This document shows positions 10,009 through 58,763 of a DNA stretch of 64,000 nucleotides, in pieces; the first letter of the stretch is position 1; each line of letters opens with the position of its first letter. The position numbers and the translations under genes are program-made. The notes under the pieces are model-generated. The model made no database searches. It worked only from the letters and a program-made list of their open reading frames with translations, and was not told the origin of the DNA. Source of the stretch: Sabellastarte sp. h YS-2021 (lineage: Eukaryota; Annelida; Polychaeta; Sabellida; Sabellidae). The stretch covers positions 61,059,028 through 61,123,027 of the forward strand of contig OZ024936.1 of NCBI GenBank assembly GCA_964017235.1. Direction: 5' to 3'.

Positions 10009-10983
10009 ATGCTGATGCTTGAGTTAGATGACCCTATGGCATACCGAAACTTCATCCGGATGCCACCAGAGCTTTTTCAAGAGCTGGAGCAGAGACTAGG
10101 GAGAGGACCTGGATGAGAGACCCCCAGAGTCCAGGACTGAAGTTGGCGGTCACCCTGAGATACTTGGCCAGTGGAGACAGCTACCTAACTCTGCAGTTTG
10201 CTTTCAGGGTGTCGAGGTCGACCATAAATAAGTTTGTGCCTGAGGTCTGCGACGCCATCATCAGGGCCTATCGAGATGAGGTGATGACATGCTCCACAAG
10301 CCCTGAAGACTTTTTGGAGGTTGAGTCCATTTTCCATCGGAGGTGGAACATCCCACATGCCCTGGGTGCCCTGGATGGAAAGCATATTCCCATCAGATGT
10401 CCACGACAGGGTGGCAGCCTCTACCACAACTACAAGGGCTTCCATTCTAATGTACTCCTGGCCTTGGTGGATGGAGACTACAAGTTCCTGTGGGTGGACT
10501 TGGGGGCAGCCGGGTCAAGCTCTGATGCACAGATTTTCAAGCACTCAGATTTGAGGCCCAAAATAGAGGATGGCACCATCGGCTTCCCAGAGAGTGAATC
10601 GCTTGTTGATGATGGGCCAAAGGTGAACTATTTTATCCTTGGGGACAATGCTTTTCCCCTCAAGCTTTGGCTTATGAAGCCCTACTCAAGACATGGTATG
10701 GACTTGAACCAGAAGGTGTTTAACTACAGGCTCAGTGGGGGAAGAAGGGTGGAGGAGAACGCCTTCGGGATACTAACATCCCGCTTTCAGATATTCCAGT
10801 ACTCCACAACCTGCTGAGGATGCAATACCCACACATCAACAGGACGATTTTGGGGCAGATGGCCAGTCTCCAATAGTGCTGGAGGGCAATGATATTCCAA
10901 ATGAGGGGCGAAACCCACTGGAGGCAGCCAAGGCACAGAGGAATATTCTGTGGGATTATTTCATGACTGATGGGCAGGTTTAA
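10009..10983 (+). pseudogene. Harbinger DDE transposase, disrupted
   Basis: HARBI1-type nuclease that cuts and joins Harbinger ends. The original start is the ATG at 10009 (MLMLELDDPMAYRNFIRM, matching copy 2). The long open part (10113-10817) carries the catalytic triad: D in ALDGKHI, D in ILGDNAFPL and E in RRVEENAFGIL. Compared with copy 2, this copy lacks the bases for PEIQKD near 10100, which shifts the frame. It also lacks about 70 bases after FQIFQ near 10800. The C-terminal tail remains readable in another frame up to a stop at 10981-10983 (WDYFMTDGQV). The gene is disrupted but keeps the active-site core. It faces the MADF-BESS-like gene on the other strand. Confidence 0.9.
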
Positions 10984-12062
10984 TTTAGACTTTATGTAAA
11001 TAAAATAAATAATTGTGTGCATTTAAATACTGTGATACAGTGACTTTCTCAATGTAAATACTAAATACTGCAATGGTACACTAAAATGTATGTGCTACCT
11101 CTAGGACTACATTATTTTACTGCAGTTTTACATGGACACTTGTTGATAAACTGAAGTATTAATTGTGTATTTTTGTCAAACATTATTGTCCTTTTTGTTA
11201 TGTTATAATGTGTGCATTTTACACTTCTTAAATAAAATCCTTGATTTCTTATACTTATTATTGTGTTTTTAATATTGCCACTGAAAAATTCATCTATTTG
11301 GTAAATGTTGACATTGTTCAATACCTTAACATACAAACTTTGATCTGCAGTCATTTGAAACTTTACAATGGTGATGCAATTGAAAGCAGTTGACACCTAT
11401 TGTTGAAATGGCCAACAATGCATTTCACTTCCTCTGCTTATGTACACCAATATGTGTCACCACCACTGAGTGGTGACAAAATGGAAGGGTTCAAAGGAAG
11501 GACATACACTTGGAACAATAGACAATCAAGTAATGAGCATACAAGCCCTCCTCAAAGTCACCAGTACTGAGAGAAAACATACCTTCCCCTACCTGAAAGA
11601 AGCAAGTGACAGGAGAAATGTGTATATTGGTGGGACATTGGAGGGATAATAGGTTCAAGTACCCCTTCACCTCCTGTTTCTGAGTTGTGGGGGTGGCTTT
11701 GGTGTCTCTTACTTAAGGTCTTGTATGTTTTTTTTTTAAATTGTTTTGGGGGGGATGTTTATGTTTGTCTCCTCTGACTTAACCTGGAGGGGGTTCTGGC
11801 TGAATACAAATTTCATTAACTGTCTTGCTGGATAGTACAATTACGGTTATATTTACATTCACTTAATCATTGTCTATTGTTATTTGCTGTTTCCATTTTT
11901 ATAATGGGGTATGTTGTATGGGGAATTTTTATTTCATTTGTTGGTGGGTTCCTTTAAATGTATATATAGCAAGAGCATTGCTCAAATAATTGTTTTGGGA
12001 AGATTTGGCGGCCCTTAAAAGAGCATTTTAAAAGTATCAGCTTTTGCTGAGTTATCAGCTGG
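10984..12062. other. Non-coding middle of Harbinger 1
   Basis: Convergent 3' flanks of the two transposon genes. It includes AATAAA-like signals just after the transposase stop (about 10998-11010) and GT/TG-rich patches. The minus-strand frame at 11112-11396 has no domain. Confidence 0.6.
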
Positions 12063-13772
12063 CTATTGCTCCCCTGCATCTGGGTGGTCTATTGGGGTGG
12101 TGGATATTTCATCAACTAGCTGGAACTGAGGTGTGTGGATGGCCTCAAAGCTGGCATCTTGTGATGTGTTCGGTTTGTTGTTGAAGTACGGGCTGTTCAC
12201 TGATTGTGGATTTGGTGGTGGTGAGAAACCGATTCTAGCTGGTGTGCTGGTAAGTGGTATTGGGCTGCTCTCCCTCCTAGTGTCTGTGACTGGTGGCGCA
12301 ATGACCCGCAGCTGGGAGGAATTTGCGCTGTGTGATACTTGCTGTTGTGCAGTTTGTTGGCTGCTTTGTTGCGTGTGCAGCTGCTCTGAACCTGGGACAG
12401 TTTGTTGTATGGGTTGCGGATGCTGTTGTTGTATGGGCTTCTGCTGCTGCTGTTGTATGGGCTGCTGCTGCTGTGGTTGTATGGGCTGCTCTGAAAACAT
12501 TCTTAGGAACTGCTGTTGCGCCAGTGCATGTGGCTGTGTAAATGTCTGTTGGAAGTGCTGCTGTGAATGTTGTAAATGCTGCTGATGTGGCTGTCCTTGT
12601 GGAACTTGTGTAAATGTCTGCGGCATCTGTTACTGTGAGGCCTGCATCCGGGTGTGAGACAATGGGTACTGGTTTGAGGCCTGGCTGTACGCGGCGGTAC
12701 TCATGCCCATTCCGTGGTGGTACTCCTTGTCACTCCGTTTAAGTCTCATCAATAAGTTAAACATCTATAGTTGAAACTCGTCATAGGAGTCACTGGTTAG
12801 TTGTACCACCTCCACCTTTAGAAAGTCACAGAAGCCCAGTCGTGGGTTATCAGCCTTGTCATCGGTCAATTTCTTGGCCACAATGTCTTGCAACTCGGTT
12901 ATTCCCCTCCGGGATTCCACGAGAGCTGATTAGAGGTCAGAATCTGCTAAGCTTGAAGTCATGCTGATGCCACATGATCTAGGAGTAGGCATATGTGTAT
13001 CGAGGTGCGACATGTCTGATGGGTCATATGTGGATTCTGGATGAGAAGTATCCTGGAACGGTTCCATGTGCACAGTCTCCCTTCTGGAAGCTGACCCCTT
13101 TGGAGCTCTGAATTCACTTTTTCCTTTAAGATGGCACACGATGTGGTCCATCAGGAAGTCAAAATTGTCTCCCAGGACCGACTTCATGTGATTGACCTTT
13201 CTGAAGAGTGTGTGCTGGCTCTGGAACCACTTTTGGCAGGCATCTTTTTCCAAGTTGTTCTCCTCACAAAACTTGTCCCACACAGCCTCCCTCTTGGACC
13301 TATCTTTGCAGTCCTGTAAACGCTTGTTGTAGAGAATGTCATTGTCACGCACAAAGTCCACTAATTTCTGCTCATTGTCAGCATTGAACAGAGCAGTGGC
13401 TTTCTTGACTCTTTTGTCAGCCTTCTCTTCTGATACATATTGCCCCTCCCTTGTCATTGACTTGCCCTTGCCTTTGCCCTTGCCCTTGTGTGTCCCCCAG
13501 CAGCCTGTGTGTCCTGTGTGTCAGCAATGTCCTCATCACTTGAATCCGAATCCTGCTGTGTCTCAGGCACAATGTCACCCTGTTCTTTATCCGACATCTG
13601 CAGAGGATCCTCAACTCCCACCACCGCCTCCTCCACCCAAGCTGCCTGCTGGCTCTGCTGAGTCTCTGGAACAGAAGTCAACTCATGCAACTCTGGACTC
13701 CGTACCTGGACCTGTGTGGACATCCTCTCCATCTCCTGACTACCTCTCCTCTTCATTCTTTTTTTGTGGCAT
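12063..13772 (-). pseudogene. MADF-BESS-like DNA-binding protein of Harbinger, with a Gln-rich tail
   Basis: The accessory Myb/SANT-type protein of Harbinger elements, thought to bind the element ends and recruit the nuclease. The start is the ATG at 13772 (copy 2 reads MPPKKRMKRRGS; this copy has lost a base here). An acidic, Gln/Ser-rich N-terminus is followed by a MADF-like trihelix (LVDFVRDNDILYNKRL to WFQSQHTLFRKV, about 13170-13390). Further on, at about 12760-12890, is FCDFLKVEVVQL...MFNLLM, which resembles a BESS motif, MADF's usual partner. The last 190 residues (12063-12626) are very Gln-rich (QPIQQQQQKPIQQQ). Frameshifts lie near 13490 and at the start, and stops separate the BESS-like and Gln-rich parts. 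Copy 2 has lost the BESS-like and Gln-rich parts altogether. Confidence 0.75.
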
Positions 13773-15101: not shown

Positions 15102-15620
15102 ATGCGAAGCCTACGTGAGCAACACAAAAATGACATTAGTTATAAGGTGCAACTATCAAAAGACAAACTCTTTGAGAATAATTCTCCAGTAGCGAGTACT
15201 TTTAAAGTTAACCCACTGCCAGATGAGATGTCAACACCAGTTAGTTACGACACTCTGCTGCATACTGATGTTCTAGAACACGCAAAAAGTTACTTTCAAG
15301 GTCACCTTATGCAAGTGAAATCGATCCAGGAAGCTAAAGCTGCATACTCTGCCTTACTGCAAAACCACAGTGTATCAAAGGCACATCATATCATGTATGC
15401 TTACTCTGTTGCTGGGGATTCTCCAAATCGGTTTATCCAAGGAAATGATGACGATGGTGAATATGGAGGCAGCGAGATTCTAAGGGATACTCTTAACAAA
15501 CACTCCTTGACAGGCTGCTTTATTGCTGTATCCAGACTCCACAATGGGCCAAACATCGGTAGAAAAAGGTTTCAACTTATTGAATCTTGTGCACAATTGG
15601 CAATTGATAAACTTTCGTAG
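15102..15620 (+). CDS. LINE ORF1 C-terminal domain fused to an IMPACT/UPF0029 domain
   Basis: A 172-residue open frame. Residues about 1-30 (REQHKNDISYKVQLSKDKLF) match the last block of L1-type ORF1 proteins (a basic stretch ending in DKL) and align with RQDRLLIGQEIF of copy 2. From about residue 65 it reads as an IMPACT/YigZ domain: FQGHLMQVKSIQEAKAAY, HHIMYAYSV, NDDDGEYGGSEIL and AVSRLHNGPNIGRKRFQLI, the block usually written SRWYGG..LGPDRFKHI. IMPACT proteins are known as small regulators of GCN2, and YigZ-like folds may bind nucleic acid. A role in LINE RNA binding or in blunting the stress response would be inference. The ATG at 15102 follows an in-frame stop directly, so it may not be the native start. 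Confidence 0.75.
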   Translation: MRSLREQHKNDISYKVQLSKDKLFENNSPVASTFKVNPLPDEMSTPVSYDTLLHTDVLEHAKSYFQGHLMQVKSIQEAKAAYSALLQNHSVSKAHHIMYAYSVAGDSPNRFIQGNDDDGEYGGSEILRDTLNKHSLTGCFIAVSRLHNGPNIGRKRFQLIESCAQLAIDKLS

Positions 15621-18600
15621 ACACTGATAAATTAAACTAACGCTGCCATTCTAAAGATCAAAAACTGTGGTTAAGGTGGAATAAAATATAAATTACCATT
15701 AATGGATCACATTATTGCTGCAATAAAAGTTAAAATTTGCAATAAGTTGTGAACATAAATGTTGTTATGAAAGTTAAAAGTAAACAATAATAAGTAAACT
15801 TAAACAGAACTTTAATTAATGATGTAGAGAACATATCGTTTCAATAAATAAAAGCCAAAACAAATGTCAAACTTAAAGTTATTGAAAATATTATTTTAAT
15901 TTATTTATTTTGACATAAGCTAAATCCTAACTGAGTATCACTAAAAGGGCGATGGGCCCTTGTAATGTCATGTAATGACTGCAGGTTGAAAATATACGTA
16001 TTTTAGAAATATAATGCCGTGATATAAGTTAGAAAAATGTTAATGATTTGTACACATTAAGGCTGCAATAGAATTTAAAAGTGTGAAATAACTATTCATT
16101 ATTCATCAGTAATAATATGCAAATATGAAAGAAGCAATTAAGGCTAAAATTTTGCAATAACGCTTAAACAAAAATGCTGCAATTAAAGTAAAATACATTC
16201 AATACGGAAAGATAAATGCTGTTAGTGTTTGAAATAAGTACTCTTTACTCATTAGTATTGTTGAAAAGGCAATAGCCACATGTGTTTAGTGGCTGTGAAG
16301 ATTTAATCTGGAGTAGTGTTGTACATATTTTCTACAAGTTCCACAAGGACATGTGGCAATAAGTACTCGTGACTCATTAGTATTCTTAAAAAGGTAATTG
16401 CCACATTTGCTTTAGTGACTGTAAAGTTTTACTTTTGACTTCCTTAAGTTTGTAATCTTGACATGTGGTATGTAGCCATTGTTCCATGACATAATCCAAA
16501 CTTTAACCCTCATTGTATGGTAAAAATATACAATAATATGTAATGTAATGCTACAATAAGGGTTAAAAGCATGTGATAATAAGTGAATTTAATTAAAGGT
16601 GTAGTAGAACAAAAGCATAATTGGTACATTGTTCTAGTTAATGGTGTTGATAGAAAGGTAATAGACACAAATGTGTAGAGACTAAATTTTTTTAACTGTT
16701 TTTGACATGTGGCAAGTTACCTTGTTTTATATGATTTAACTAAAACTTTACCTAACAATATGTGGTAAAAATTTGGCAAGTAAAAAAAAAACAAAAAAAA
16801 CCTTGTTATATATGATGACTAATTTTTTTTTAACTGTTTTTGACATGTGGCAAGTTACCTTGTTTTTATATGATTTAACTAAAACTTTACCTAACAGTAT
16901 GTGGTAAAAATTTGGCAAGTAAAAAAAACAAAACCTTGTTATATATGATTTTATATGATTGAACGAAAACTTTAACTAATAGTATGTGATAAAAATATGC
17001 AATAAAACGTAAACTGTAATACTGTAATACAGGTTAAAAGTATGTAACATCTAACCAACATCTAAATCATGCAGCTAAAATGTGTAGTGAATGTCAGATA
17101 TTGGATATAGTAAGAATATAAAACAGTTAAGATATTGGTAAAATATATTATAATATGTAACCGTAAAAGCAATCTTAAAGGCTTTATACACAAAGTACGC
17201 AATAATTAGTAAATGTAATAAGTGCTATAATAATTTTTGTTATTGGTGCTGATTTAAAAGTTACTGTTACTGTGTAGTAACTAAAGCTTAAATTCTGTGT
17301 ACAGTTATTGAGATTTTTGTCAGGAAATCTTTTCATACATGTTATTCATCTAGTTTTTGATAATCTATCACATAGTAAAATTTCAAAGCTGTTGCACATT
17401 GGATAGCTGAATAATAGAGACTTTGACATTCTTACTACTGAGTAAATCCATTGTAGCTCCAAAACTATTGCAGTTACAGTATTTTCCTATAATACATTGT
17501 TCAGCTACTGTGTCCTTAGCTATAAGATGGCACATACTTTGGAGTTCCATTGCATGCCATAAGTGAGTAATAGCTATTTTCCTAATTGTAGCAAAATAAT
17601 GACAAAAGTAAATGTCAAATACCTTCAAAATTATTAAAGTTAGGGAAATCTTTTCATATGTCATTCATCTTGTATTTTGATAAGCTATCACATAGTAAAA
17701 TTTCAGACCTGTTGCACATTGGATAGCTGAATAATAGAGACTTTGACATTCTTACTACTGAGTAAATCCATTGTAACTCCAAAACTATTGCAGTTACAGT
17801 ATTTTCCTATAATACATTGTTCAGCTACTGTGTCCCTAGCTATAAGATGGCACATACTTTGGAGTTCCATTGCATGCCATAAGTGAGTAATAGCTATTTT
17901 CCTAATTGTAGCAAAATAATGACAAAAGTAAATGTCAAATACCTTCAAAATTATTAAAGTTAGGGAAATCTTTTCATATGTCATTCATCTTGTATTTTGA
18001 TAAGCCATCACATAGTAAAATTTCAGACCTGTTGCACATTGGATAGCTGAGCAATAGCTACTTTGAAATTCGAACTGTTGAGTAAATCTCTTTTGTAATT
18101 CCAAAACTACTGCAGTTACAGTATTTCTAAAATATGTTCTCCAGCTACTTTGTCATTAACTATAAGATGGCATATAGCTTGTGGTGTCATTGTATGCCAT
18201 AATAGCTATTTTCTTATTTGTAGCAAAATAATAACAGAATTAAATGTCAAATATCTTCAAAAGTATTAATTTATAAAAGTTAGGAAAATTATTTCATATA
18301 TGTCGCTTATCTCGTTTTTGATAAGCTATCACATAGTAAAGTTGCCCTTAACTATAAGATGGCATATAGCTTGGGGTTCCATTGCATGCCATAAGTGAGT
18401 AATAACTATTTCCTTATTTGAAGCAAAATAATGAGAGAAGTAAATGTCAAATATCTTCCAAAGTATTAAAGTTAGGGAAATCTTTTCATACATGTCATTC
18501 ATCTCGTTTTTGATAAGCTATCACATAGTAAAGTTTCAGACCTGTTGCACATTGGATAGCTGAGCAATAGCCACTTTGACATTCAGACTGTTGAGTAAAT

Positions 18601-19859
18601 CTATTTTGTAACTCCAAAATGTCTGCAGTTAAGACATTCTCCTAAATTATGTTCTCCAGCTACTTTGTCCTTAACTATAAGAGGACATCTAGCTTGGGGT
18701 TCCAGTAAATGTAAAATATCCTCAAAAGACCATATAAAGTAAGAAATAATAAGTAGATTAGCACTATAATAAAGGTAAAGTGAACTTAAGATACAAGGTA
18801 AAGTTATATTCTGTGTACCTTTTTGACACTTTTGACGTGTGGCAAATAGCCTTTTTGCTATGGTAAAATTGATAACTTTAGCTATTAGTATGTGGTAAGA
18901 ATATGCAATAAAATATAAATGTAGTGGCTATATAATAAAGAAGAATTTTAAGAATACGCAATAAAATATAAACGTAATTGCTATAATAAGGATTAAACAT
19001 TTGTAATAATTCAATTGGTGCAGTTATAAAAGCAAAATGAACTTCAAATATCAGATATAGTGAACATATGCACAGTACCTATGTGGTGAAAACATATAAT
19101 ATGTAACCATAAATGCTGTAATAAAGACCATGTGAAGTGTGTGGTAAGAATATGGAACAAAATGTAAACTTAATTGCTGTAATAAAGGTTAAAATTATGA
19201 AACATTTTAACTGGTGCAGTTACAAAGGTGAAGTGAACATTAAATATCAGATATAGCAAACATATGCACAGTAAGTATGTGTAAAGTTTGAAATAATTAG
19301 TAATATTAATTAGCACTATAAATGTGAAGTGAACTCAAGTTATATGTTGAATATTGGTTAAAATTAACAATGTATTAGGCCATGGCCTCTTGGTGTATTA
19401 CAATACCATAACAAAGACGAAAAGATTTTCAGAGGATAAGTAAAGACAAATGCTGTAATAAAGTTAGGTTGTAAGGATGATGGAGTCCAAACTACACTGC
19501 TTTTGATGAAAAAATTCCTTACTATGATAAAGTTGATAATATTTAAAGGCTATTACAACTTCATCTTTGAAACTAAAAGTTACTGTTGTTACAAGCAACA
19601 AATACAATGTACATAATGTATAATATGTTATCCACTTTTTTAAAGTGTGTGATCTTTTTGTTACAAGCAGCAAATATAATGCACATGTTGTTTAATTTGT
19701 TGCCCAATTTTTTAAAGTGTGCGAACTCAATTTTGAATAATCAATGTTTTGTGTCTTGCTGTGTTCTTAAAGGGATGCATATTGTCTTAATAGATTCACC
19801 TGCTTTGCCATATTTATTTGAAACAAAAAATGTCTGCAAGAACTTTAGAATGGTAAAAG
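15621..19859. repeat. Repetitive spacer between LINE ORF1 and ORF2
   Basis: 4.2 kb, AT-rich and non-coding. A degenerate motif near GCTGTAATAAAGGTTAAAA recurs dozens of times (for example near 15718, 16550, 18960, 19120 and 19180), mixed with TATGTGGTAAAAATAT-like blocks. A pair of longer near-copies at about 16690-16800 and 16830-16940 share GTTTTTGACATGTGGCAAGT. A 320-base satellite (separate entry) sits inside. The short minus-strand frames at 17383-17664 and 17703-17984 are repeats of one another and not genes. Confidence 0.7.
17345..18740. repeat. About 320-bp tandem satellite, 4-5 units
   Basis: Each unit starts near TTTGATAAGCTATCACATAG. Units begin at about 17345, 17664, 17984, 18304 and 18496. 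Units 1 and 2 are nearly identical over 320 bases, unit 3 is diverged, unit 4 has lost its middle, and unit 5 fades out near 18740. The graded similarity suggests recent duplication at the left end of an older array. Confidence 0.85.
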
Positions 19860-22800
19860 ATGCCTGACACATCAAGTATTAAAGTGTTATCTGCAAATTG
19901 CCAGGGTCTTCGCAATATGGAAAAAAGGACAGATGTCCTTTCTTATTTTAAGGAAACTGGTGCTTCAATCATTTGTCTGCAAGACACACATCTGTTACCG
20001 AAAGATGTAGGTTCTGTTAAAAAATTATGGCCTGATTGTTATTTAAATGGTTCAAAAACCAATTCACGTGGGGTAGCTGTACTGCTAAATAATAACTTTG
20101 ATTACCAAGTCTCTAAATGCAATGCAGACCGTAATGGCAACTACATACAGCTTCTATTAACTTGTAGCTCTCTAAAAATTAATCTTATTACAATCTATGC
20201 ACCAAATCATGATGACCCAAACTTTTTTGAAGAAATAAAAGACTTAGCAAATAATGATGAAACAGATTATGTCATAATCTGTGGAGATTTCAATTTGGTA
20301 ATAGACCCACAAAAAGACTCTCACAACTATGTAAAATTAAATAATCCAAAATCAAGATCAATTGTCCTAGACACTGTAAATGACCTTGATTTGATAGACA
20401 TTTACAGAACTCTTAATCCACAAACTAAACGTTATACATGGAGAAGAAAAAATCCACTGAAACAGGCAAGATTGGATTTATTTTTGATATCAAACTCAAT
20501 GTGTGACTTAATTTCAAAATGTGAGATCCAGTCAAGCTACAGATCAGATCATTCTGTCCTTGAACTTAATATATCACTTCATAACTTTAAGGTGGGTAAA
20601 GGAATTTGGAAATTCAACAATAGTCTACTTAAAAATAAGGATTATTTAGATACCATTAACAAGTGCATTGAGGAAGAAAAAATGAAATATGCTGTTCCAA
20701 TTTATAATCTTTATTACTTAATGAACAACCAGGGTACTATTGAATCGACAATTGAAAAAAATATGTTTTTAGAAATGCTCTTTATGCGTATAAGAGGCGA
20801 AAGAATAAAATTTGCTACAACTCTCAAAAAAGAAAATAAAATTAGAGAAAAAACTCTGTTGGAAGATATCGATCACTTAGAAAGAATTCAGGATGAGACT
20901 GGAACAAACTCAAAATTAATGGAAGATAAAAAGCTAGAACTGCAAAAATTACGTGAAAACAGAATAAAAGGTCAAATGGTAAGATCACATTTACAATGGC
21001 TAGATCAGGGGGAAAAGCCTACAAATTTTTTTTGCAAATTGGAAACCAAAAATTTTGTTGATAAGACCATTAAAAAAGTACAAACAGCAGACGGTTCTGT
21101 TATAACCGAACAACACCAGATATTAAAAGAAGTGCAAAAATTCTATAGTAATCTTTTTAAAAGTAAGGATAATTCACTCGGTACATCAGATATTTCTGAA
21201 ATGCCTGAATTACAGAACATTAAGAAGATCTCCCAACCAAACCTGGGCAGAGAAATGTCAACTAATGAACTAGGAAATGTATTAAAAAAGATGAAAAACA
21301 ATAAATCACCAGGTATTGATGGGCTTTCAGCTGACGTTCTGAAAGTATTTTGGGGAAAACTGAAAAACCACATTACAGATGCAATAAATGTCTCTTACAA
21401 CAAAGGTATATTACCAGTATCATGGCGACAAAGTATTATAACTTGCTTGCCAAAAGGTGACAAGACCAGACAATTTTTGAAGAACTGGAGGCCAATATCT
21501 CTCCTATGTGCAGTGTATAAGTTAGCATCTGGTGTCTTAGCTGAAAGAATGAAGCCCTATCTTAATAATTTAATCTCAAAAACACAAACTGGCTACATCA
21601 AAGGACGATATATAGGGGAAAGTATTCGCACAGTCTATGACTTAATGAATTTTACAGAAAAGTATAACATTCCAGGGATGATCATGTTAATAGATTTTGA
21701 AAAAGCGTTTGACTCTGTGTCATGGAAATTTTTATACTCAACTTTAGCTCTGTTTGGTTTTGATAAAGCTTTTATTGACTGGATAAAATTATTTAATAAT
21801 AATGCTACTACGTTTGTTTTACAATGCGGCGTTCTTTCAGATCCTATTCATATTGGGCGTGGATGTAGGCAAGGAGATCCAATCTCACCTTATCTTTTCT
21901 TACTTGTGGCAGAAATCTTAAATATAATGATTGAGAACAATATCAGCATAAAAGGAATTTGTGTTGGTACTCAAGCTTTAAAAATGACACAATTTGCAGA
22001 TGACACTACATTACTACTTGATGGAAGTCAAAGTTCCTTGCAGACAGCTTTAAATATTATGGAGCTTTTTGGTTCACTATCAGGTCTCAAAATGAACACC
22101 GAAAAAACTAAAATAATATGGATAGGTAGCAAGAAGCACAGCAAAACTACATTGGGGAGATACAGAATTCAAGTAGCAAGAAGCACAGCAAAACTACATT
22201 GGGGAGATACAGAATTCTCATTTTTGGGTATTGATTTTTCAGTGCATCTAGAAAATATACCTGAGCTAAATTTCAGAAGAGCAATGAACAAAGCAAAAAA
22301 AGTACTTAATTGTTGGAAGAATAGGTTTCTAACTCCTATTGGGAGAATAACAGTGATAAAAACCATGATCCTGTCTAAATTTAATCATTTATTCATGTCT
22401 ATTGTGACACCTAAAAAAATCCTAGATGATTTAAACAGAATGTTATTTTCTTATCTATGGGGAGGAAAAACACACAAAATTAAAAGGATAAATGTCTGTG
22501 CTGATTATTTAAAAGGTGGACTACGTATGGTAGATATTTATAAATTTGAAAAATCTTTAAAACTTGGGTGGATGAAACATATTTTGTCAAAGCCAGAGTC
22601 GCCATGGAACTTATTACTACAAGAAAGCTGTAAAAGCATATTCAAAATGTTTTATGTTGGGCCAGAGTGGTTTCAACAACAACTTCCAAATCTTAATCTC
22701 TTCTGGTGTAATGTATTTGAAAACTGGATAACATTCTGTAGAAATCAAAAAGTCGAAACAGGTAAAGACCTCTTAAGTAGTAGCATTTGGTACAATAGAC

Positions 22801-23677
22801 ACATATCTCCAGAAAGTCTGTTTTATGGAACCTGGTTTAAAAAAGGTATATTGATTGTGTCAGACCTACTTAACTCAGATGGAACCATTTTTGGCCCAGA
22901 TGAACTAAAAATAAAGCATAAGCTCAATTTGAATATATTACATTACTACAGAATAAAACATCTGATAACTAAATTCATAGAGAGGAAAAATGTTTTTTCT
23001 AAAGTTAAATTGGAAAGACCACATGTTCCATTTCATATAAATGTTCTGCTAAATCCTGAAAAGGGAAGTAAACAGTTCTACACAATACTTTGTTGTGATG
23101 ATTTTGAACAACCGAACAATGAAAAAAATGGCCACTTGAATTAAATGCACAACTACATAGTGAATTTTGGAGAACCTCTTACAAGATATGTTTTAAAGCA
23201 GTTTTGGATAACTCATATATATGGTTTCAGTACAGAACATTGCATAGAATACTTGGTACACAGGACCATTTACATAAATTGAATCTCAGTGAATCATTTA
23301 CCTGTGGAATATGTGGTCAGCAACGTGAAAACATTACCCATTTATTTGCCAGATGTCAAATTGTGCTTGATCTTTGGAAAAACATAACAAAATGGTTTGA
23401 ATTGAAACTTTCCATTAAAATAAAGCTTAATGAGTTGGACTTCATATTTGGGTATCAGAAGCATGATGAAAATTTTTGGTTGTTAAACTTTATACTTTTG
23501 ATTACTCGAAGCTATATATTTCATTGCTCAAAATACAAACATGATGTTAATATATACCATCTGCAAAATCTTATAAAAGAAAAGTACTTAGAACAACATA
23601 CTCTCTCCAAATTAAACAACACACAACACATATTTAGCAAAAAATGGTTGACCTGGAAAATATTATTTGAGGAATAG
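19860..23677 (+). pseudogene. LINE ORF2: endonuclease and reverse transcriptase, one frameshift
   Basis: The protein nicks target DNA and copies LINE RNA into it. Start MPDTSSIKVLSANCQGLRN. Residues 1-235 form an APE-type endonuclease (CLQDTHLL, IYAPNHDD, IICGDFNLV, YRSDHSVLEL). From about 410 the reverse transcriptase follows: NNKSPGIDGLSADV, LKNWRPISLL, MLIDFEKAFDSVSW, GCRQGDPISPYLF and the catalytic FADDTTLLLDG. The style is L1/Tx1. The open frame ends at 23144; one base shift in an A-run near 23125 moves reading to the frame 23204-23677, which holds the C-terminal knuckle CGICGQQRENITHLFARC. Full length would be about 1270 residues. A 47-bp tandem duplication lies at 22126-22219. Confidence 0.92.
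22126..22219 (+). repeat. 47-bp tandem duplication inside ORF2
   Basis: GTAGCAAGAAGCACAGCAAA and the bases after it occur at 22126-22172 and again at 22173-22219, almost unchanged. 47 is not a multiple of three, so the two copies are read in different frames (SKKHSKTTLGRYRIQ, then ARSTAKLHWGDTEF). The overall frame nonetheless stays open, implying a compensating indel. Confidence 0.9.
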
Positions 23678-24086
23678 GAATGTGTTATTTGTAGTGTATT
23701 ATTAGTTTTCTATGGTCCTTTCATTGTGGTTGTTATACACTTCCTATATTGGTGTTCAGAGTAGAAGTACTGAGATAGTAAAGTGGATTCTTTTTTAATT
23801 AAAAACGACTGAAAATATTGTATTGTACACAGAATATATTGATTGTATTGTATGTCTGACAATGTTGTCACACTTTTGTAAATGTAAATATCTGTATAAT
23901 AATAAAAAAAAAAAAAAATTATTCAAGCAAAATGGAGGATGGTAACAGTAAAAAAATCCTGAATAATCATAACAGATATTTTTGGTCAAAAATCAGTTCT
24001 TGCGAATCTCTATTGTTTTGTAACTTCCCTTTTATCTGTAACATCTAAGTTTGTGCACTCTTCCAAAAACATGGAGCTGTGTTATC
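23678..24086. other. LINE 3' UTR and short flank
   Basis: About 225 bases of 3' UTR end in the poly-A at 23904-23918, followed by about 170 bases of unique DNA up to the second Harbinger. No features are seen in the flank. Confidence 0.6.
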
Positions 24087-24853
24087 TTAGACCCCAGTTA
24101 CACATGGCCAGATGCACCGCCAGATCACGTCAGGTTACCAAATATGGAAAATTTTGAGTGATTTACGGATCATATTTTTCGTCCTTGAACACATCCATAT
24201 GTGATGTGTCCATTGGAGACACCACAGAAAAATCAAACTGGTTGAACTTTCCACAAAAGGTTTGCGGATCCTAGGTGTAATTAATATCTGTATCACATCC
24301 ATATGTTATCGATAAAGCGTCCGTAACATCCTTACAGCTTCCGTACATGTCCTTGGCTCATCTGTACCAATTAAAATTCGGAAAAAGTATGCGGTTGTCC
24401 ACAGAGGGTGTTCAGAGGCTGTAAGGACACTACCGGCACTTTACGGACAATGCCAGAAACCACAAAGATCAATAGGGATGCTCGTTGGAGAAGGTCATAG
24501 ATATGAAATTAGATATTCCTGGAGGTGTATACGGACAATAGGAATGGGGTTTACGGATGGTAAGGACGTCTCAAGGACAATAAGCACAGGGTTTACGGAT
24601 ATATTTTCAGTTTCACACAGCATTTGGGAACTTACGGAAAGGCACTTTGTCATGGACAAAACCGTATATAAGGGCCGCTTGGCTAGGCTTTTGCTAATAT
24701 ACTTTTTCGGCAATTTGATGTGAAAACATCAACTTTTGGAACTTTTACAGTTGATACTGTATATGTTTGAGAATATATTTTGTTGGCATTCTTATTACCC
24801 CAAAATATTTCCGACTTTTCAAAATAGGGAGTTTGGCGAATATTTCTGTAAAA

Positions 24854-25815
24854 TGCCACCAAAGAAAAGAATGAAGAGGAGAGGTAGTCAGGAGATGGAG
24901 AGGATGTCCACACAGGTCCAGGCAAGGAGTACAGAGATGGATGATTTGACTTGTGTTCCAGAGACTCAGCAGAGACAGCAGGCAGCTGGGGTGGAGGAGG
25001 TGGTGGTGTGGGTTGAGGACCCTCGGATACGGAACAGGGTACAGAATACAGAAAATAACGGATACAGAAATCAGATTCAAGTGCTGAGGACATTGCTGAC
25101 ACACAGGACACACATGCTGCTGGGGGGACACAGAAGGGCAAGGGCAAAAAGGATGACAAAAGGGGCAAGAAAACCACTGTTGTGTTCAGTGATGAGAATG
25201 AGCAGAAATTAGTGGACTTTTTGTGTGACAATGAAATTCCCTACAACAAGAACTACAAGGATAGGTCCAAGAGGGAGGTTGTCTGTATTTTGTGAGGAGC
25301 ACAACTTGGACAAAGATGTCTGCCAAGAGTGGTTCCAGAGCCAGCGCACACCTTTTGGGAAGGTGACACACATGAAGTCTGTCCTGGGGGGACCATAGCA
25401 GCGAAATGGACCGGAGACAATTTCCAGTTCCTGAGGGGCCATATGTTGTGCCATGTTAAAGGAAAAAGTGAATTCAGGCTGTCAAAGGGGTCAGCTTCCC
25501 AAGCCAGTGCACCAGCGGGCTCAGCATCCAAAAGGGAGACAGTGCACATGGAACCATTCCAGGATACTTCTCCTCCAGAATCCACATATGACTCAGCAGA
25601 CATTTCACACCTAGACACACATACGCCTACTCCTAGATCGCGAGGCATCAGCGTCACTTCGAGCTTTGCAGATTCTAACTTCCAGTCAGCTCTCATGGAA
25701 TCCTGAAGAGGGGTAACCGAGTTGAAAGACATTGTGGCCAAGAAATTCACTGATGACAAGGCTGACAAGGCTGATAACCCACGACTTCTCCCCAAACCCC
25801 AAACCAGGAGGTAAA
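24854..25815 (+). pseudogene. MADF-like protein of Harbinger 2, disrupted and truncated
   Basis: The start ATG at 24854 gives MPPKKRMKRRGSQEMERMST, so this copy preserves the native N-terminus. The trihelix block is spread over changing frames (ENEQKLVDFLCDNE near 25197, then EWFQSQRTPFGKVTHMKS near 25325-25385). A region around 25020-25200 is out of frame. The downstream Ser/Thr-rich part (ETVHMEPFQDTSPPESTYDS) is intact in frame 25329-25706. Sequence homologous to copy 1 stops near 25795 (DNPRL), before the BESS-like motif. It probably bound the ACGGAT-rich ends in life (inference). Confidence 0.75.
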
Positions 25816-26490
25816 GGGGTACTTGGACCAACGTCCAGTTAGCTGGGGTTGAATGGGTATCTCTTCAATGTCCCACCAACATAAACATTTCTCCTGTCAC
25901 TTGCTTCTTTCAGGGGGGAGGTACATTTGCCCTTAGTACTGGCGCCTTTGAGGAGGTCTTGTATACTTAATTACTTGATTGTCTATTTTTCCCAGTCAAT
26001 GTATGTCCTCCCTTTGAACCCTTCCTTTTGTCATCACACAGTTGTCGTGTCACATATTTGTGTACCTAAGCAGAGGAAAGAAATGCATTTTTGGCCATTT
26101 CCAAAATATAAAATTTTCATCTGCTGTTAATTGCTTCACCAATGTAAAGTTTCTAATGACTGCAGATCAAAGTTTGTAGGATAAGCTATTGAACAATGGC
26201 AACATTTGCCAGATAAATGCATTTTTCAGTGGCCATATTAAAATGAAAATAAGAAGAATAAGAAAATCAGGCATTTTATTGCAAAAAGTGTAAAATGCAC
26301 ACATTACAACATAACAAAAAGGACAATAATGTTTGATCTAATCAATAAGTGTCCATGTAAAACTGTATTAAAATCATATAGTTCATGAGGTAGCACATAC
26401 ATTTTAGTGTTCCATTGCAGTATTTAGTATTTACATTGAGAAAGTCACTGTATCACAGTATTTAAATGTACACAATTATTTCTGTTTATT
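25816..26490. other. Non-coding middle of Harbinger 2
   Basis: Convergent 3' flanks homologous to parts of 11.0-11.7 kb of copy 1, for example CACATTTCTCCTGTCACTTG-like and TGCACACATTACAACATAAC-like blocks. No gene is seen. Confidence 0.55.
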
Positions 26491-27549
26491 TTAAATTATG
26501 TCCATTTGCCAAGGGACCTGTCCATCAGTCATGAAATAGTCCCTCAGAATATTCCTCTGTGTCTTTGCTGCCTCCATTGCGTTTCAGCCCTCATGTGGAA
26601 TGTCATTGTCCTCCAGCACTATTGGGGGCTGGACCTCTGCCCCAAAGTCATCCTGTTGACCTGTGGGATATTGCATCCTCAGCAGGTTGGGGAGTACTAG
26701 GCAGGCCATGACCACCCTGGCTACCACGGGAGGATCCTGCTGCATTGTCCTCTGGAATATGCGGAAGCCTGACGTCAGTATCCCGAAGGCATTCTCTACC
26801 ACCCTTCTTCCCCGGCTGAGCCTGTAGTTAAACACCCTCTGGTTCAAGTCCATGCCACGTCTTGAGTAGGGCTTCATGAGCCAAAGCTTGAGGGGGAAAG
26901 CATCATCCCCAAGGATAAAATAGTTCACCTTCGGCCCATCATCAACAAGCGATTCACTCTCTGGGAAGCCAATGGTGCCATCCTCTATTTTGTGCCTCAA
27001 ATCTGAGTGCTTGAATATCTGTGCATCAAAGCTTGACCCGGCTGCACCCAAGTCCACCCACAGGAACTTACAATCTCCATCCACCAAGGCCAAGAGAACA
27101 ATTCGAATGGAAGCCCTTGTAGTTGTGGTAGAGGCTGCCACCTCATCGTGGACATCAGATTGGAATGTGCTTTCCATCCAGGGCATCCAGGGAATGTGGG
27201 ATGTTCCACCTCCGATGAAAAACGGACTCGACCTCTTGGGGCTTGTGGGGCATGTCATCACCTCATTTTGATAGGCCCTGATGATAGTGTTGCAGACCTC
27301 TGGCACAAACCTATTGATGGTTGACCGTGCCACCCTGAAAGCATATTGAAGGGTTGGGTAGCTGTCTCCACTGGCCAAGTGTCTCAGGGTGACCGCCAAC
27401 TTTAGTCCTGGACACTGGGGGTCTCTCATCCAGGTCCTGTCTTTCTGGATCTCAGGGCCGAGTCTCTGCTCCAGCTCTTGAAACAGCTCTGGTGGCATCC
27501 GGATGAAGTTTCGGTATGCCATAGGGTCATCTAACTCAAGCATTGGCAT
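26491..27549 (-). pseudogene. Harbinger DDE transposase, copy 2, disrupted
   Basis: The start ATG at 27549 gives MPMLELDDPMAYRNFIRMPP. The N-terminal part is intact and keeps PEIQKDRTWMRD, which copy 1 lacks. From about 27260 to 27110 the reading is shifted: the peptide RSSPFFIGGGTSHIPWMPWM is what copy 1 encodes in a different frame. The first catalytic Asp (DGKH block) is therefore lost, although the frame recovers at VLLALVDGDCKFLW. The second Asp (ILGDDAFPL) and Glu (RRVVENAFGIL) are present. The open frame ends at 26584 where copy 1 reads EGRNPLEAAK, so this is an early stop. The original end is near 26491. Confidence 0.9.
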
Positions 27550-28269
27550 CAGTCTGGTGTACTGACCCTCTTCTTCACATTCTGCTTGGCTTAACCTTGA
27601 CCTGACAGAATATCTTCTGGGTCTTTACTGTCCTAGTTGTACACCCCATCTCCTTATCAGCCAGTCTATCATAGCTGTAATGATGGCTAACTGTCTATCC
27701 ATTTGTAATATTAAGAGTTGAATTTGCATAAGATCTCTGTTCCGTCTGTTCTTTCTGGCTTCTTAATTCTATCTGGCCAGTGGCCTTACCCTCACCCATT
27801 TTATAGGCATTTGGATCCAGGTATCCAGTGGTCAATGTTTCCCACCAGGACAGCTTAATGTAATCATAAAAATCCCTAACTGATAAACTGACATCCGCGA
27901 GAGAAATAAAGATCTGTAAACCCCATTTGCTAATCTCTGTGAGTCTCCGCAAGATCCGTATACCCATCTGGGGTGTCCTTTAGACGTCCTGATGCATCCC
28001 TATGTCATCCTGGCATGTCTTGGGATGTTTCCGCCATACTGCGGGTGGTCACGGATGTGTATCCAGAGGTCATGCGCAAGCAATGGAAAGCGTTCCTAAC
28101 ATCTTTGTGGCATCCGTACCATCCGTGGAGTTACCAGTGTCACAGCCGTAAATTACTCACTTTTCAAACATTCCCCCTCCCCAAACCCCTGCCATCTACA
28201 ATTTCCATATATGGAACTGTGGCCTATATCCGTGGGGGATCCACGAAAGTATAACTGGCCCCTTAGTAA

Positions 28270-34886: not shown

Positions 34887-35264
34887 TTACTTTGTCAGTA
34901 CCGCAGCTGCAGCTTCAGTAATCAACTGAAACCTTTTTTATCCGAAGTATGTTCCACCAAACCAGCGTGTGACCACTAATAGTTTGTTCTTTATTCCTTT
35001 CTCCTTTAGGACTGACAAAAGTCTTTTTCCCGCACCCCACTCGCGATCATCATTGAAATGTTTCACACATGAGTTGCCTCTATCCACACGGTAGGCATAT
35101 ATATTGTGATCTGCCTGTCCGACTCTTGTGTCCATGGAAATAGCCTTCAATGCTGTGATGACATCATCCTGTGAATTTATATCTACAACATGACCTTGGA
35201 AAGTACTACAATTGTAGGTATGTGGTGGAGCAGATGCCACATTAAAGCTCGGTCAAGGACACAT
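34887..35264 (-). pseudogene. IMPACT/UPF0029 domain of LINE 2 ORF1
   Basis: Minus-strand frame: CSTFQGHVVDINSQDDVITA, ADHNIYAYRVDRG, FNDDREWGAGKRLLSVLKEK and KLLVVTRWFGGTYFG. After one in-frame stop come KRFQLITEAAAAVL and a final stop at 34887-34889. The order and spacing match copy 1 and the IMPACT family (AYR, DDGE..AG..L, VVxRWFGGxxLGxxRF). It lies 30-40 codons behind the ORF1 C-terminal domain, but in another frame, so this copy has a frameshift or stop between them. The first listed residue is encoded by GTG and is not a real start. Confidence 0.78.
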
Positions 35265-35296: not shown

Positions 35297-36211
35297 CTAA
35301 AAAATTTCTTGGCCTATCAACAGCCTGTCCTGTCTCCACTTTGGTTTCTGCTGCTTTTTTCGAGCTTCTTGAAATTTAGGCATCAGCGTTTTCTTTCTGC
35401 TCCTCATTTCATCTGGGATTTGCTCACTAACACCAAATTTTTTCCTTTTATCTAAATTTTTTAGGTGACTAAGAACAATCTCCTTTCTTTTGTAAGGATT
35501 GAACTTTGCAACTATAGGTCTCGTCTTGTGAAGTCTTTGTTTTCCAAGCCTATGGACTATATCAAAAGTAACAGTTGATACTGTGTCCTCAGCAATTTTT
35601 AGCTCATCCTTCATAAATGCTTTTAAGAGTGTTTTGGTGACCTCACTTGATTCATTAGGAGCTTCTTTGATGTTGTAAAAGATCAAATTACCCATCATGG
35701 ATTTTGCCTGAAGTTCTATAACATCACCCTTCAGGTACTGAATGTCTTTCTCATTTTTTGCGATTTGGCCTGCTTGTATTTGACATTTTCGTGCCAAGTC
35801 ATACTTTTCTTTTTTAAGTTCCTCAATCTCTTTGGCATGTTGCTCCTGAGATAATTCTGCCTGGGTTAGCTGTTCCTGAACAACTTGTAATTTATTACTC
35901 AGTTGCTCATTTTGCTCATCAATGACACCAAGGATGTCCTTCTTGAACTTATCCATGCTAACAGATACTTTCTCCTTGACCAAAATAGCACTTCTATTCA
36001 TCACTGGATAGTCTTTTGATTCGGGATCACTGTCCAAGTCCACAGCAGCTGTTACTGGAAAAATCATCTTCCCATCATTAGTAGTGTTGGGTGTTGTGTC
36101 AAGTACTTTGAAAAAATTACTTATTCTATGTTGTTTTACTTCCAACATGGATGCAGGTGAACTTTCCTGCAAAAGCAGTGAATCATCATGTTTTTGCTCC
36201 TTTTTTGACAT
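35297..36211 (-). CDS. LINE ORF1 protein: coiled coil, RRM and C-terminal domain
   Basis: 304 residues from the ATG at 36211 (MSKKEQKHDDSLLLQ). Residues about 80-165 form a long coiled coil (DEQNEQLSNKLQVVQEQLTQ, EIEELKKEKYDLA). An RRM-like domain follows (NLIFYNIKEAPNES to VHRLGKQRLHKTRPIVAKFN). Last is the basic C-terminal domain ending RQDRLLIGQEIF. This is the L1 ORF1p layout: a trimeric RNA-binding chaperone that packages LINE RNA. The frame stops at 35297, but ORF1 homology continues into the IMPACT domain beyond, as copy 1 shows. Confidence 0.88.
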   Translation of the reverse strand: MSKKEQKHDDSLLLQESSPASMLEVKQHRISNFFKVLDTTPNTTNDGKMIFPVTAAVDLDSDPESKDYPVMNRSAILVKEKVSVSMDKFKKDILGVIDEQNEQLSNKLQVVQEQLTQAELSQEQHAKEIEELKKEKYDLARKCQIQAGQIAKNEKDIQYLKGDVIELQAKSMMGNLIFYNIKEAPNESSEVTKTLLKAFMKDELKIAEDTVSTVTFDIVHRLGKQRLHKTRPIVAKFNPYKRKEIVLSHLKNLDKRKKFGVSEQIPDEMRSRKKTLMPKFQEARKKQQKPKWRQDRLLIGQEIF

Positions 36212-36604
36212 TACTGCAGTAAAGGCTGAATGATCACTGTTTAAGTCTGTGTAATATAGATCAATTATTCTTTCACACTATTTGGTAGGACTGTCAATAG
36301 AGTCAGTGTTCATTCCTGTCCTCTATAATGGTGTCACAAAGTACACCTTTTATATTTAACACACCTGTCAATCATGCATGTATACATCTTTTCATATTAA
36401 ATGCCTCATTTCAAAAGTTAAAACTGCAGATTTTACACTTTTCACCTAGTTTAAAAGTTATTCACTCTCATCATCATAATCTACAGACTTTTAACTGCCA
36501 AATGGTTATATTTCCATTAGTGATATCCACAGTATTCCACTGTAATAATACAATTATTCCACACCAAAAACAATGTGCTTCTACCTACTAAACACTTTCA
36601 TGAA
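36212..36604 (-). promoter_or_regulatory. 5' UTR of LINE 2
   Basis: About 390 non-coding bases between the 5' target duplication and the ORF1 ATG. By position this holds the internal promoter, but I recognise no motif. Confidence 0.45.
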
Positions 36605-50259: not shown

Positions 50260-51407
50260 ATGGAATCAGAGATGGACAAGAGGGTGGCGGAACAAAAACA
50301 GAACCAAAATGGGTTAAAAAATGGCAAAGAAAAATCAGCTGAGAATGAATCGTATTTACAAGAAATATATTATGATACGAGACATCCTGCATCTTTTAGT
50401 AGTATTAAAAAATTATATAACTATATAAAATTTAATAGTAATAAAAAGATTTCTAGGAAAGATATTAAAATATGGTTAAGTAAACAAGAATGATACACAG
50501 CACATCGTCCTGTGAGACGAAGATTTAAAAGACCTCGTGTGCTTGCCTTCTATAAGAACTATCAATGGGATACGGATACGGCTAATATGACAAAATATAA
50601 AAAACAAAATGATGGATATGGATATTTTGCTGTTTTCATTGATATTTTTACACGATTTTTATATACTCAAGCGATGAAATCACTTACAGGTCATGAAATG
50701 GTTACTGTTATGGAAAATTTTTTTGAAAGATCACAAGATCAACCTTATATTCTTAGAAGTGATCAAGGAAGTGAATATGTTAATAGAGAGGTTGGGATTT
50801 TTTTAAAAAAGGAAAAGGTTAAACATGTTTATACTTTTTATGAAACTAAAGCAAATTATGCAGAAAGAGTAATTAAAACTATAAAATTAAAGATAATAAA
50901 ATATTTGACCGCTAATGAAACCTTCAGATGGATAGATGAATTAGATAATTTAACCTATAGTTACAATAACAGCAAACATAGATCTATAGGAATGACACCC
51001 TTTGAAGCAAGTAAAGAATAAAAAAAATATGATTTATGGAAAACCCAGTATGGGACTGAAAGAAAAAAGGAGAAATTTATTCAAAGTAGTAAAAATCTTA
51101 ACATTAAAGGGACTACTTCTAGAAGATAAGTTTAAATTAGGTGACAGGGTTAAAATAAGTTATCTAAAAAATGAATCAAACTATTCCTATGTATCAACTT
51201 AAAGATTATAATAATGATATAATTCATTCATATTTTTATGAACCTGAACTTCAATTAGCATTTTTGGATGAGAATACTATATATAAAATCGAAAAAATTG
51301 AATCTAAAAGAAAAAGAAAGGGAATTCGTGAGGTATTAGTAAAGTGGAAAGGGTGGCCAAAGAGATTTAATTCTTGGATACCAGAAGCAAATATTACTGA
51401 CATATAG
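50260..51407 (+). pseudogene. Polinton retroviral-type integrase with chromodomain
   Basis: The N-terminal block is IYYDTRHPASFSSIKKLYNY with ISRKDIKIWLSKQE. The catalytic core has D (NYQWDTDTANM), D (LRSDQGSEYVN) and E (NYAERVIKT). The C-terminal chromodomain reads EVLVKWKGWPKRFNSWIPE. Integrases of this type join the element ends to target DNA with a 6-bp stagger, as the GATGTT duplication shows. The chromodomain may guide insertion to marked chromatin. Part of a broken element. Confidence 0.92.
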
Positions 51408-51425
51408 AGTGAAAAATAAGTAAAA

Positions 51426-51836
51426 ATGGATACTTATATGTATTTCTTCTTAAGTTCTAGTGATTCTCTGTTATTTCATCCTGATAATAACAGTTATAAT
51501 TTTATAATAGAATTGCCAGAAAGAATTCATTTAGAGGGTGAATGGGTAATAGGTTTATGTGATTTTTATCATAGTTCAAACCTGTTAGAAACTATATTTG
51601 TGTTATGCTATATATGTGATAACAGTTATATTGGGGATTCTTTAAAACCTATATTAAGAATGATTTATCCTAATAACAAGCAAATTTATTTCAATTATAA
51701 AGAAATTTATTATGTTAAAGTTAAAAATTATTGCCTTAATCGCTTGAAGGTATATATAAGAGATGAAAATTTTAAAATTCCACCGAGTATTACTGGAACA
51801 AGTAGATTGACACTACATTTGAAAAAAATAAAATGA
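51426..51836 (+). pseudogene. Polinton minor capsid (penton-like) protein
   Basis: The start MDTYMYFFLSSSDSLLFHPD and the block YNFIIELPERIHLEGEWVIG fit the opening of Polinton minor capsid proteins, which have a single jelly-roll fold and form capsid vertices. It lies between integrase and major capsid, the usual place. Confidence 0.75.
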
Positions 51837-52193
51837 CAAATTATGAGGATTTTTGTAAAAAGTGTATTCAAGGAAAAATCGGTTTTAAACCAGATTTTTA
51901 CATAATAGAAAAAAACATAAGGATAATACAGATATTCCTAAAGAAAATATTGACGTCACAATTGTAAGTCCTACTAAAGCTGCTGTAGAACAAGCCAAGA
52001 GTGAATTAAAGCAAGAAAATGCTATAAATAGGGATGAAAAAAATACACATGTTCAAAGTGGAGGCAAAGAGCAGATCCAACGAGTTAAAAAGAGAAAAAA
52101 TCAGTATAAAGTTAAAGGAACATCCAAGAGTCTCAATAAAAAGGGAAAAGAAAAAAAGGGGGAAAGAAATAAGAAAAATTTAACTTACAAATC
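51837..52193 (+). pseudogene. Lys-rich stretch between the capsid genes
   Basis: Coding-like remains that are strongly basic (RVKKRKNQYKVKG, KKGKEKKGERNKKN) in front of the major capsid. Possibly the end of the minor capsid gene or a separate core protein; I cannot decide. Confidence 0.4.
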
Positions 52194-52196
52194 ATT

Positions 52197-53505: not shown

Positions 53506-53521
53506 AAAAATCAGGAAAAAA

Positions 53522-53971
53522 ATGAATTCCATTCAAATAAGTAAGTTCATGAACCAAGATAAGTTTATTAGAAATCGATTCAAGGGAGTTTACCCAAAAG
53601 ATCTTATTCCTGGAGATTTAACTCCTCCATCAATTATTGTAGTGAACCTAGATAGATCTTACGAAAAAGGAAGTCACTGGATTGTATTACACTACAATGA
53701 TATCGAGTGGGCTGAACATTTCGATTCGTTAGGAAATAAACCAGATGAAGTTTTACAAAATTTATTGACAGATCAAAAAATTTCATATAAATATAACAAT
53801 AAAAGACTTCAAAACTACTTCACAGATACATGTGGACTCTTTTGTTTATACTACAGTTATTATTCATGCAGAGGATGGACATTGGGAAAGATACTGGATA
53901 CTTTATCACATGATCTTAAAAACAATGAAGAAATAGTTAAAGACTTTGTATTTACCAATTTTTATGTATAA
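53522..53971 (+). CDS. Polinton adenovirus-type cysteine protease
   Basis: 149 residues. The His block is GSHWIVLHYND, the acidic block EHFDSLGNKP, and the Cys block DTCGLFCLYYSYY, the H...D/E...C order of adenain/Ulp1-like (C5/C48) proteases. These trim capsid precursors during virion maturation. It follows the major capsid directly. The frame is open. Confidence 0.9.
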   Translation: MNSIQISKFMNQDKFIRNRFKGVYPKDLIPGDLTPPSIIVVNLDRSYEKGSHWIVLHYNDIEWAEHFDSLGNKPDEVLQNLLTDQKISYKYNNKRLQNYFTDTCGLFCLYYSYYSCRGWTLGKILDTLSHDLKNNEEIVKDFVFTNFYV

Positions 53972-54018
53972 AGAATAAAAACACAGTCAATAAACTAAGT
54001 TATAACAAAAATTGCTTT

Positions 54019-58739: not shown

Positions 58740-58763
58740 TGTTAAATTACTACATTGAAGAAA

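What the first reader, a model, noticed from the sequence alone, without database searches (positions are those of the whole stretch)
15102..15620. LINE ORF1 fused in frame to an IMPACT (UPF0029) domain
One open frame joins the end of an L1-type ORF1 C-terminal domain (KVQLSKDKLF) to a full IMPACT-like domain (DDGEYGG, SRLHNGPNIGRKRFQLI). The second, diverged LINE of this window has the same domain directly behind a complete ORF1. Two independent copies in the same order argue for a real LINE protein architecture. I know of no described LINE with this domain. IMPACT proteins restrain GCN2, so the LINE might damp the stress response or use the fold to bind RNA (inference).
Basis: partly seen in the sequence, partly recalled or inferred. 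Interest (0 to 1): 0.88.

Follow-up and report, generated by a model that had tools for sequence, protein, structure and literature searches.

The report
Retrotransposon protein carrying an IMPACT domain
An L1-like jumping gene in this genome has joined the ancient part of a stress-regulator protein (IMPACT) to its RNA-packaging protein and keeps it under selection, and relatives with the same fusion turn up in other public sequences.

Summary
Window 15102-15617 is the end of an L1-type ORF1 fused in frame to a full UPF0029/IMPACT "ancient" domain (Pfam 2.4e-17), in a 5'-truncated LINE with ORF2 and poly(A). A second, broken LINE has the same order. Genome-wide, 150 of 150 scored UPF0029 matches (481 candidates) pass the cut-off. 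The 20 long loci fetched, and both window copies, have a LINE ORF2 downstream. Five copies, 99.9% identical, are intact in both ORFs. Profile and fold searches hit both human L1 ORF1p and yeast YIH1/bacterial YigZ. Of 143 database proteins, 118 carry RRM-CTD then IMPACT. IMPACT is the segment with fewest amino-acid-changing differences in 8 of 9 deep comparisons. Residues shared with fungi are mostly kept, others often lost. No RWD domain was seen, so GCN2 inhibition is unlikely. I favour use of the universal site in a translation-linked step of the LINE particle (inference). No description in print was found in an open-licence library.

The parts
15102..23918 (+). LINE copy 1: 5'-truncated L1-like element, ORF1 tail + IMPACT, long spacer, ORF2, poly(A) end
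15102..15620 (+). open frame: end of ORF1 C-terminal domain fused to IMPACT
15285..15605 (+). UPF0029/IMPACT ancient domain (aa 62-168 of the frame)
   Evidence: Pfam 2.4e-17
15621..19856 (+). inter-ORF spacer of 4.2 kb, 29% GC, with tandem repeats (320 bp x 3.2 at 17323-18340)
19857..23677 (+). ORF2 (endonuclease + reverse transcriptase), frame broken near 23123-23144
23904..23918 (+). poly(A) end of copy 1
35297..36277 (-). LINE copy 2 ORF1 frame (RRM-CTD aligns to P0001 and L047; coiled-coil-like part before it)
34890..35207 (-). LINE copy 2 IMPACT domain, shifted frame and one TAA
29828..33512 (-). LINE copy 2 ORF2 (endonuclease + reverse transcriptase), broken into several frames

Best explanation
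An L1-like LINE lineage carries, at the end of ORF1, the C-terminal 'ancient' (UPF0029) domain of IMPACT without the RWD domain, moves with it, and keeps it under purifying selection (shown by sequence). That it was captured once is not rejected, not proven; that the donor was an animal-type IMPACT is inferred from shared motifs (FQGH, ATHNxYAYR) and was not tested by a tree. ORF1p should be a coiled-coil trimer that binds RNA, like human L1 ORF1p, with one IMPACT domain per subunit (inferred from fold matches). The residues that IMPACT proteins of animals and fungi share, most of them also found in a bacterial relative, are mostly kept, so I infer that the LINE uses the universal ancient-domain contact. 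YIH1 is found with ribosomes, so I guess that this contact helps the LINE particle at a translation-linked step, such as holding ORF1p on its own translated RNA or helping ORF2 expression across the long spacer. Confidence about 0.97 in the fusion and its mobility, about 0.3 in the translation-linked role.
Against: No assay and no expression data. The Yih1 region sufficient for ribosome binding overlaps the RWD-linker part. Pfam's L1 ORF1 models gave no match at E 0.1 to the eight ORF1 frames scanned, and coiled-coil proteins such as tropomyosin rank among the L1 ORF1p hits in the profile search. Five of 24 residues shared by animals and fungi fall below 0.6 in the fusions, V234 to 0.07. In L047/L045 IMPACT is no better conserved than RRM or CTD. 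Five database ORF1s without IMPACT look complete (P0033, P0034, P0037, P0038, P0141), so related ORF1s work without it. The RT tree and ORF1 trees differ on L021 and L034. The spacer is only about 0.3 kb in L039, so a link of IMPACT to long spacers is weak.
Confidence: 0.6

Rival explanations
1. The domain lets the LINE damp GCN2 and the integrated stress response by mimicking IMPACT.
For: Homology to YIH1/IMPACT is clear, and IMPACT inhibits GCN2 (abstract starts listed).
Against: Overexpressed RWD domain alone inhibits the response, and RWD residues are needed for Gcn1 binding (passages). No RWD in copy 1 or in eight ORF1 frames scanned, nor among the precomputed Pfam domains of the fused proteins listed.
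Confidence: 0.1
2. The domain is a plain extra nucleic-acid-binding or structural module of ORF1p; only the fold matters.
For: It follows an RRM-CTD at a near-constant distance.
Against: Conservation is concentrated in residues shared across IMPACT relatives: A365, D382, D383, H361 and R421 at 92-100% of 115-118 rows, which looks like a specific site.
Confidence: 0.3
3. The domain tethers the LINE particle to another host partner (actin, CDK) for transport or nuclear entry.
For: Yih1 binds actin and Cdc28, and a Yih1 fragment 133-258, which holds the ancient domain, bound Cdc28 (passages).
Against: The main binding regions map to the RWD-linker; no data for the LINE protein.
Confidence: 0.12
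4. Artefact: a host IMPACT exon or pseudogene next to LINE debris.
For: Copy 1 is truncated and copy 2 is broken.
Against: Near-identical complete copies on different contigs, single 545-aa frames, ORF2 behind in 22 of 22 loci examined, the same fusion in 118 of 143 database proteins.
Confidence: 0.01

Closest known systems
L1-type (type II) ORF1p, human LINE-1 (2yko, 2ldy)
   Same: coiled coil, one RRM, CTD; upstream of an EN-RT ORF2; poly(A) tail
   Different: an extra C-terminal IMPACT domain and, in most of the long loci read here, an inter-ORF spacer of 1.3-4.3 kb
YIH1/IMPACT (6bqi; P0131-P0136)
   Same: UPF0029 domain with most of the residues shared by animals and fungi; FQGH and ATHNxYAYR motifs as in the arthropod IMPACT proteins
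   Different: no RWD domain; fused to a retrotransposon RNA-binding protein
Bacterial YigZ family (1vi7, 2cve)
   Different: sequence nearer to YIH1 than to 2cve (1.4e-25 against 2.3e-6)
Other LINEs with acquired domains: CR1/L2 esterase ORF1 (PMC3905857), TRAS helicase (PMC5563155); search listing and start of abstract only
   Same: a foreign domain built into a LINE protein
   Different: other domains, and for TRAS another ORF

Membership tests
L1-like LINE | ORF1 with coiled coil, RRM and CTD | tested here: met
   profile hits to L1 ORF1p; folds. Pfam's own L1 ORF1 models did not match at E 0.1.
L1-like LINE | ORF2 with APE-type endonuclease and RT | tested here: met
   L1 ORF2p match 1.2e-82 over 5-1187 of 1284
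L1-like LINE | poly(A) tail and target-site duplication | tested here: met
   poly(A) in L026-L032; flanking repeats clear in L026 and L029, 8-11 bp by eye in L027, L028, L032, none seen in L031; L030 is 5' truncated and L025 is interrupted
L1-like LINE | RT placed in the L1 clade of a reference tree | not tested
   no reference clades were held; in PDB the nearest is L1 ORF2p, then R2
L1-like LINE | ORF1p trimer | not testable with these tools
   inferred from the long predicted coiled coil only
IMPACT/YIH1 protein | UPF0029 ancient domain | tested here: met
IMPACT/YIH1 protein | N-terminal RWD domain that binds GCN1 | tested here: not met
   no RWD in Pfam scans of copy 1 (E 1) and of eight ORF1 frames (E 0.1)
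ORF1 types I-V as listed in PMC4120745 | a listed type that includes a UPF0029 domain | tested here: not met
   passages seen: types by RRM/CCHC, CC-RRM-CTD, PHD, esterase, unclassified; 'UPF0029' and 'IMPACT' occur 0 times in the main text

The most novel reading that the evidence does not exclude
A new ORF1 class (coiled coil-RRM-CTD-IMPACT) defines a large, old lineage of L1-like LINEs spread over many animals (hosts of the database copies are unnamed, so the spread is a guess). The universal UPF0029 site is a required retrotransposition function, making these elements a natural genetic system for finding what this domain, conserved from bacteria to humans, does.
Probability: 0.45. Interest if true: 0.88.

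Novelty: new variant of a known kind. Interest (0 to 1): 0.78.

Why it matters
The UPF0029 domain is conserved from bacteria to eukaryotes and its function is called unknown in the papers seen. A LINE that carries this domain without RWD, and keeps most of its shared residues across 93 representatives under 70% identity, separates that function from GCN2 control and offers a selectable read-out. It also adds a class to the known LINE ORF1 architectures.

Tried and rejected
Chance or host-exon origin: rejected. Four small loci that I took for possible host IMPACT exons (L041-L044) read as LINE copies by eye. The host IMPACT gene of this genome was not found: RWD gave 6 matches, none of which I linked to UPF0029, and a search with P0134 did not complete. 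The organism was not determined. Viral contigs: 62 pattern matches, none a relative. Rfam: 0 matches in window, L026, L021. Codon-model runs gave trees but no printed omega. In the database, 10 of 143 proteins matched RRM-CTD without IMPACT: by eye P0030, P0031, P0032, P0130 and P0137 are cut short or frameshifted, while P0033, P0034 (named Patella caerulea), P0037, P0038 and P0141 look complete, so ORF1s without the domain exist.

Whether copies of the window's ORF2 elsewhere follow an ORF1-IMPACT did not complete either.

Full report
Observation. The frame 15102-15620 (172 aa) ends an ORF1 C-terminal domain and continues into a complete UPF0029/IMPACT domain (Pfam 2.4e-17). It is the 5'-truncated start of a LINE copy: the sequence upstream of 15102 is mostly mismatched, with two stops, against the longer relative P0001, ORF2 with endonuclease and RT follows at 19857-23677, and the copy ends in poly(A) at 23904-23918. 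The minus-strand LINE at about 36277-29828 has ORF1, then IMPACT in another frame with one TAA, then a broken ORF2.

In the genome. The organism was not determined. A search of the window's own 1.79-Gb genome for UPF0029 gave 481 first-look candidates; 150 were scored and all 150 pass the curated cut-off; 136 of 150 have no in-frame stop, and open frames reach 560 aa. These are the best-scoring 150, so the share of intact frames is biased upward, and copy 1 is not among them. I fetched 20 loci of 9.9 kb, chosen mainly for high score or long frames. In 20 of 20, and in both window copies, tblastn with one ORF2 finds ORF2 sequence downstream on the same strand; in L040 it starts only at residue 319 of the query. 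Five copies (L026, L027, L028, L031, L032) have an uninterrupted 545-aa ORF1 frame and an uninterrupted 1284-aa ORF2 frame. L025 and L027-L032 are 99.7-99.9% identical to L026 over their aligned lengths and lie on other contigs. L026-L032 end in poly(A); flanking direct repeats are clear for L026 (93 bp) and L029 (12 bp), shorter by eye for L027, L028 and L032, not seen for L031. This is recent movement of an element that carries the domain. L021-L024 form a second subfamily, near-identical among themselves over more than 8 kb and about 66-67% identical to L026 in the aligned parts.

Beyond this genome. Two profile searches of 5.8 billion proteins gave 35 and 106 hits. Of all 143 proteins collected from three searches, 118 have RRM-CTD followed by IMPACT, 118 of 118 in that order with 24-49 aa between; 10 have RRM-CTD only, of which five look complete by eye; 15 have IMPACT only. 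The profiles contained both domains, so this share is not a frequency in nature. Sources are ENA, JGI, LGN and NCBI records, mostly without names, so the host range is unknown; some (P0001, P0005) are nearly identical to copies of this genome. Taking representatives under 70% RRM-CTD identity, and leaving out rows with a short domain, 93 remain; pairwise identities of the two halves correlate (Mantel r 0.83; 0 of 1000 permutations as high), and IMPACT is the better-conserved half in 76% of 4278 pairs. A tree of 134 LINE rows (118 fusions, 11 loci, both window copies, and the fragments P0002-P0004, which I counted as LINE although they show no RRM-CTD) and 14 non-LINE IMPACT domains does not reject one LINE clade (the held tree is 11.8 lnL better than the free one; p-AU 0.655; few columns, long branches). 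Trees of RRM, CTD and IMPACT among 11 loci agree in the main split, while L033, L036 and L039 shift; the RT tree differs for L021 and L034.

Selection. Between copy 1 and L047 the IMPACT domain has dN 0.149 and dS 1.44 (ratio 0.10); the CTD part compared has 0.34 and the linker 0.13. In nine deeper pairs, synonymous differences in IMPACT are near saturation (pS 0.68-0.88) and IMPACT has the lowest pN of all segments in 8 of 9; the exception is L047/L045, where RRM and CTD are slightly lower. In the three closest pairs (L034/L035, L033/L020, L026/L018) few changes exist and the IMPACT ratio is 0.27-0.35.

What the domain keeps. I compared the 118 fusions with seven IMPACT proteins taken as animal-type (four named arthropods P0131, P0133, P0134, P0136; P0036, P0132, P0135 unnamed), six taken as fungal (YIH1, P0139 and P0143 named; three unnamed) and one bacterial segment. 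Forty-one columns are invariant in the seven. Of these, 24 are also shared by all or all but one of the fungal rows: 19 of 24 are kept by at least 60% of the fusions (F157 0.86, H188 0.92, A192 1.00, D209 0.98, G211 0.94, E212 0.86, R237 0.83, G245 0.95, R248 0.95; P0134 numbering), and 2 of 24 fall under 30% (V164, V234). Of the other 17, 11 fall under 30% (K154, A162, K182, N189, D206, C207, D208, R218, L222, N253, R257), although K154, A162 and N189 are also found in the bacterial segment. G240 (0.59) and Y239 (0.36) are partly lost. I read this as retention of the widely shared site rather than of animal-specific contacts. Overexpressed YIH1 RWD domain alone inhibits the starvation response, and the function of the ancient domain is called unknown (PMC7140605 and PMC4503747, passages). 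The LINE has the opposite half, so GCN2 damping is unlikely. A role at the ribosome or in translation is my guess, from the association of Yih1 and IMPACT with ribosomes and from the suggestion, mentioned in PMC6822775, that PF01205 helps counter translation inhibition under starvation (passage).

In print. Searches for UPF0029 with retrotransposon, IMPACT domain with LINE and ORF1, UPF0029 with transposable element, PF01205 with reverse transcriptase, and UPF0029 alone (0, 0, 0, 1, 4 papers) found no paper that, by its title and the start of its abstract or the passages seen, describes this; broader searches listed none by title either. Term searches inside PMC4120745 (UPF0029, IMPACT), PMC11203168 (UPF0029, IMPACT) and PMC10294476 (UPF0029, PF01205, RWD) found none. 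The library holds open-licence papers only; Repbase and Dfam were not available.

Noticed in passing
L026 477-569 and 8670-8762: A 93-bp exact direct repeat flanks this intact LINE, far longer than usual L1 target-site duplications (recalled as 7-20 bp).
   Followed up: partly
L026 2731-4640, L021 2733-7062, window 15621-19856: Inter-ORF spacers of 1.9-4.3 kb, AT-rich (29-30% GC), with tandem repeats of 72-400 bp in L021 and window copy 1; only about 0.3 kb in L039. How ORF2 is translated across them is unexplained.
   Followed up: partly
window 22126-22217: Exact 47-bp tandem duplication inside the ORF2 of copy 1.
   Followed up: no
window 50494-58763: Cluster of ORFs that look (recalled, not searched) like a Polinton/Maverick element: integrase-like, capsid-like, protease-like and B-family DNA polymerase-like frames.
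   Followed up: no
window 10032-13520 and 24683-27624: Two related ORF sets, in opposite orientation, that look (recalled, not searched) like Harbinger-type transposase plus a partner protein.
   Followed up: no
window 59648-60688: A further RT-like frame on the minus strand, of another LINE type by eye.
   Followed up: no
P0035 (842 aa): Very diverged ORF1-UPF0029 fusion with a long N-terminal part and about 140 residues behind the domain.
   Followed up: no
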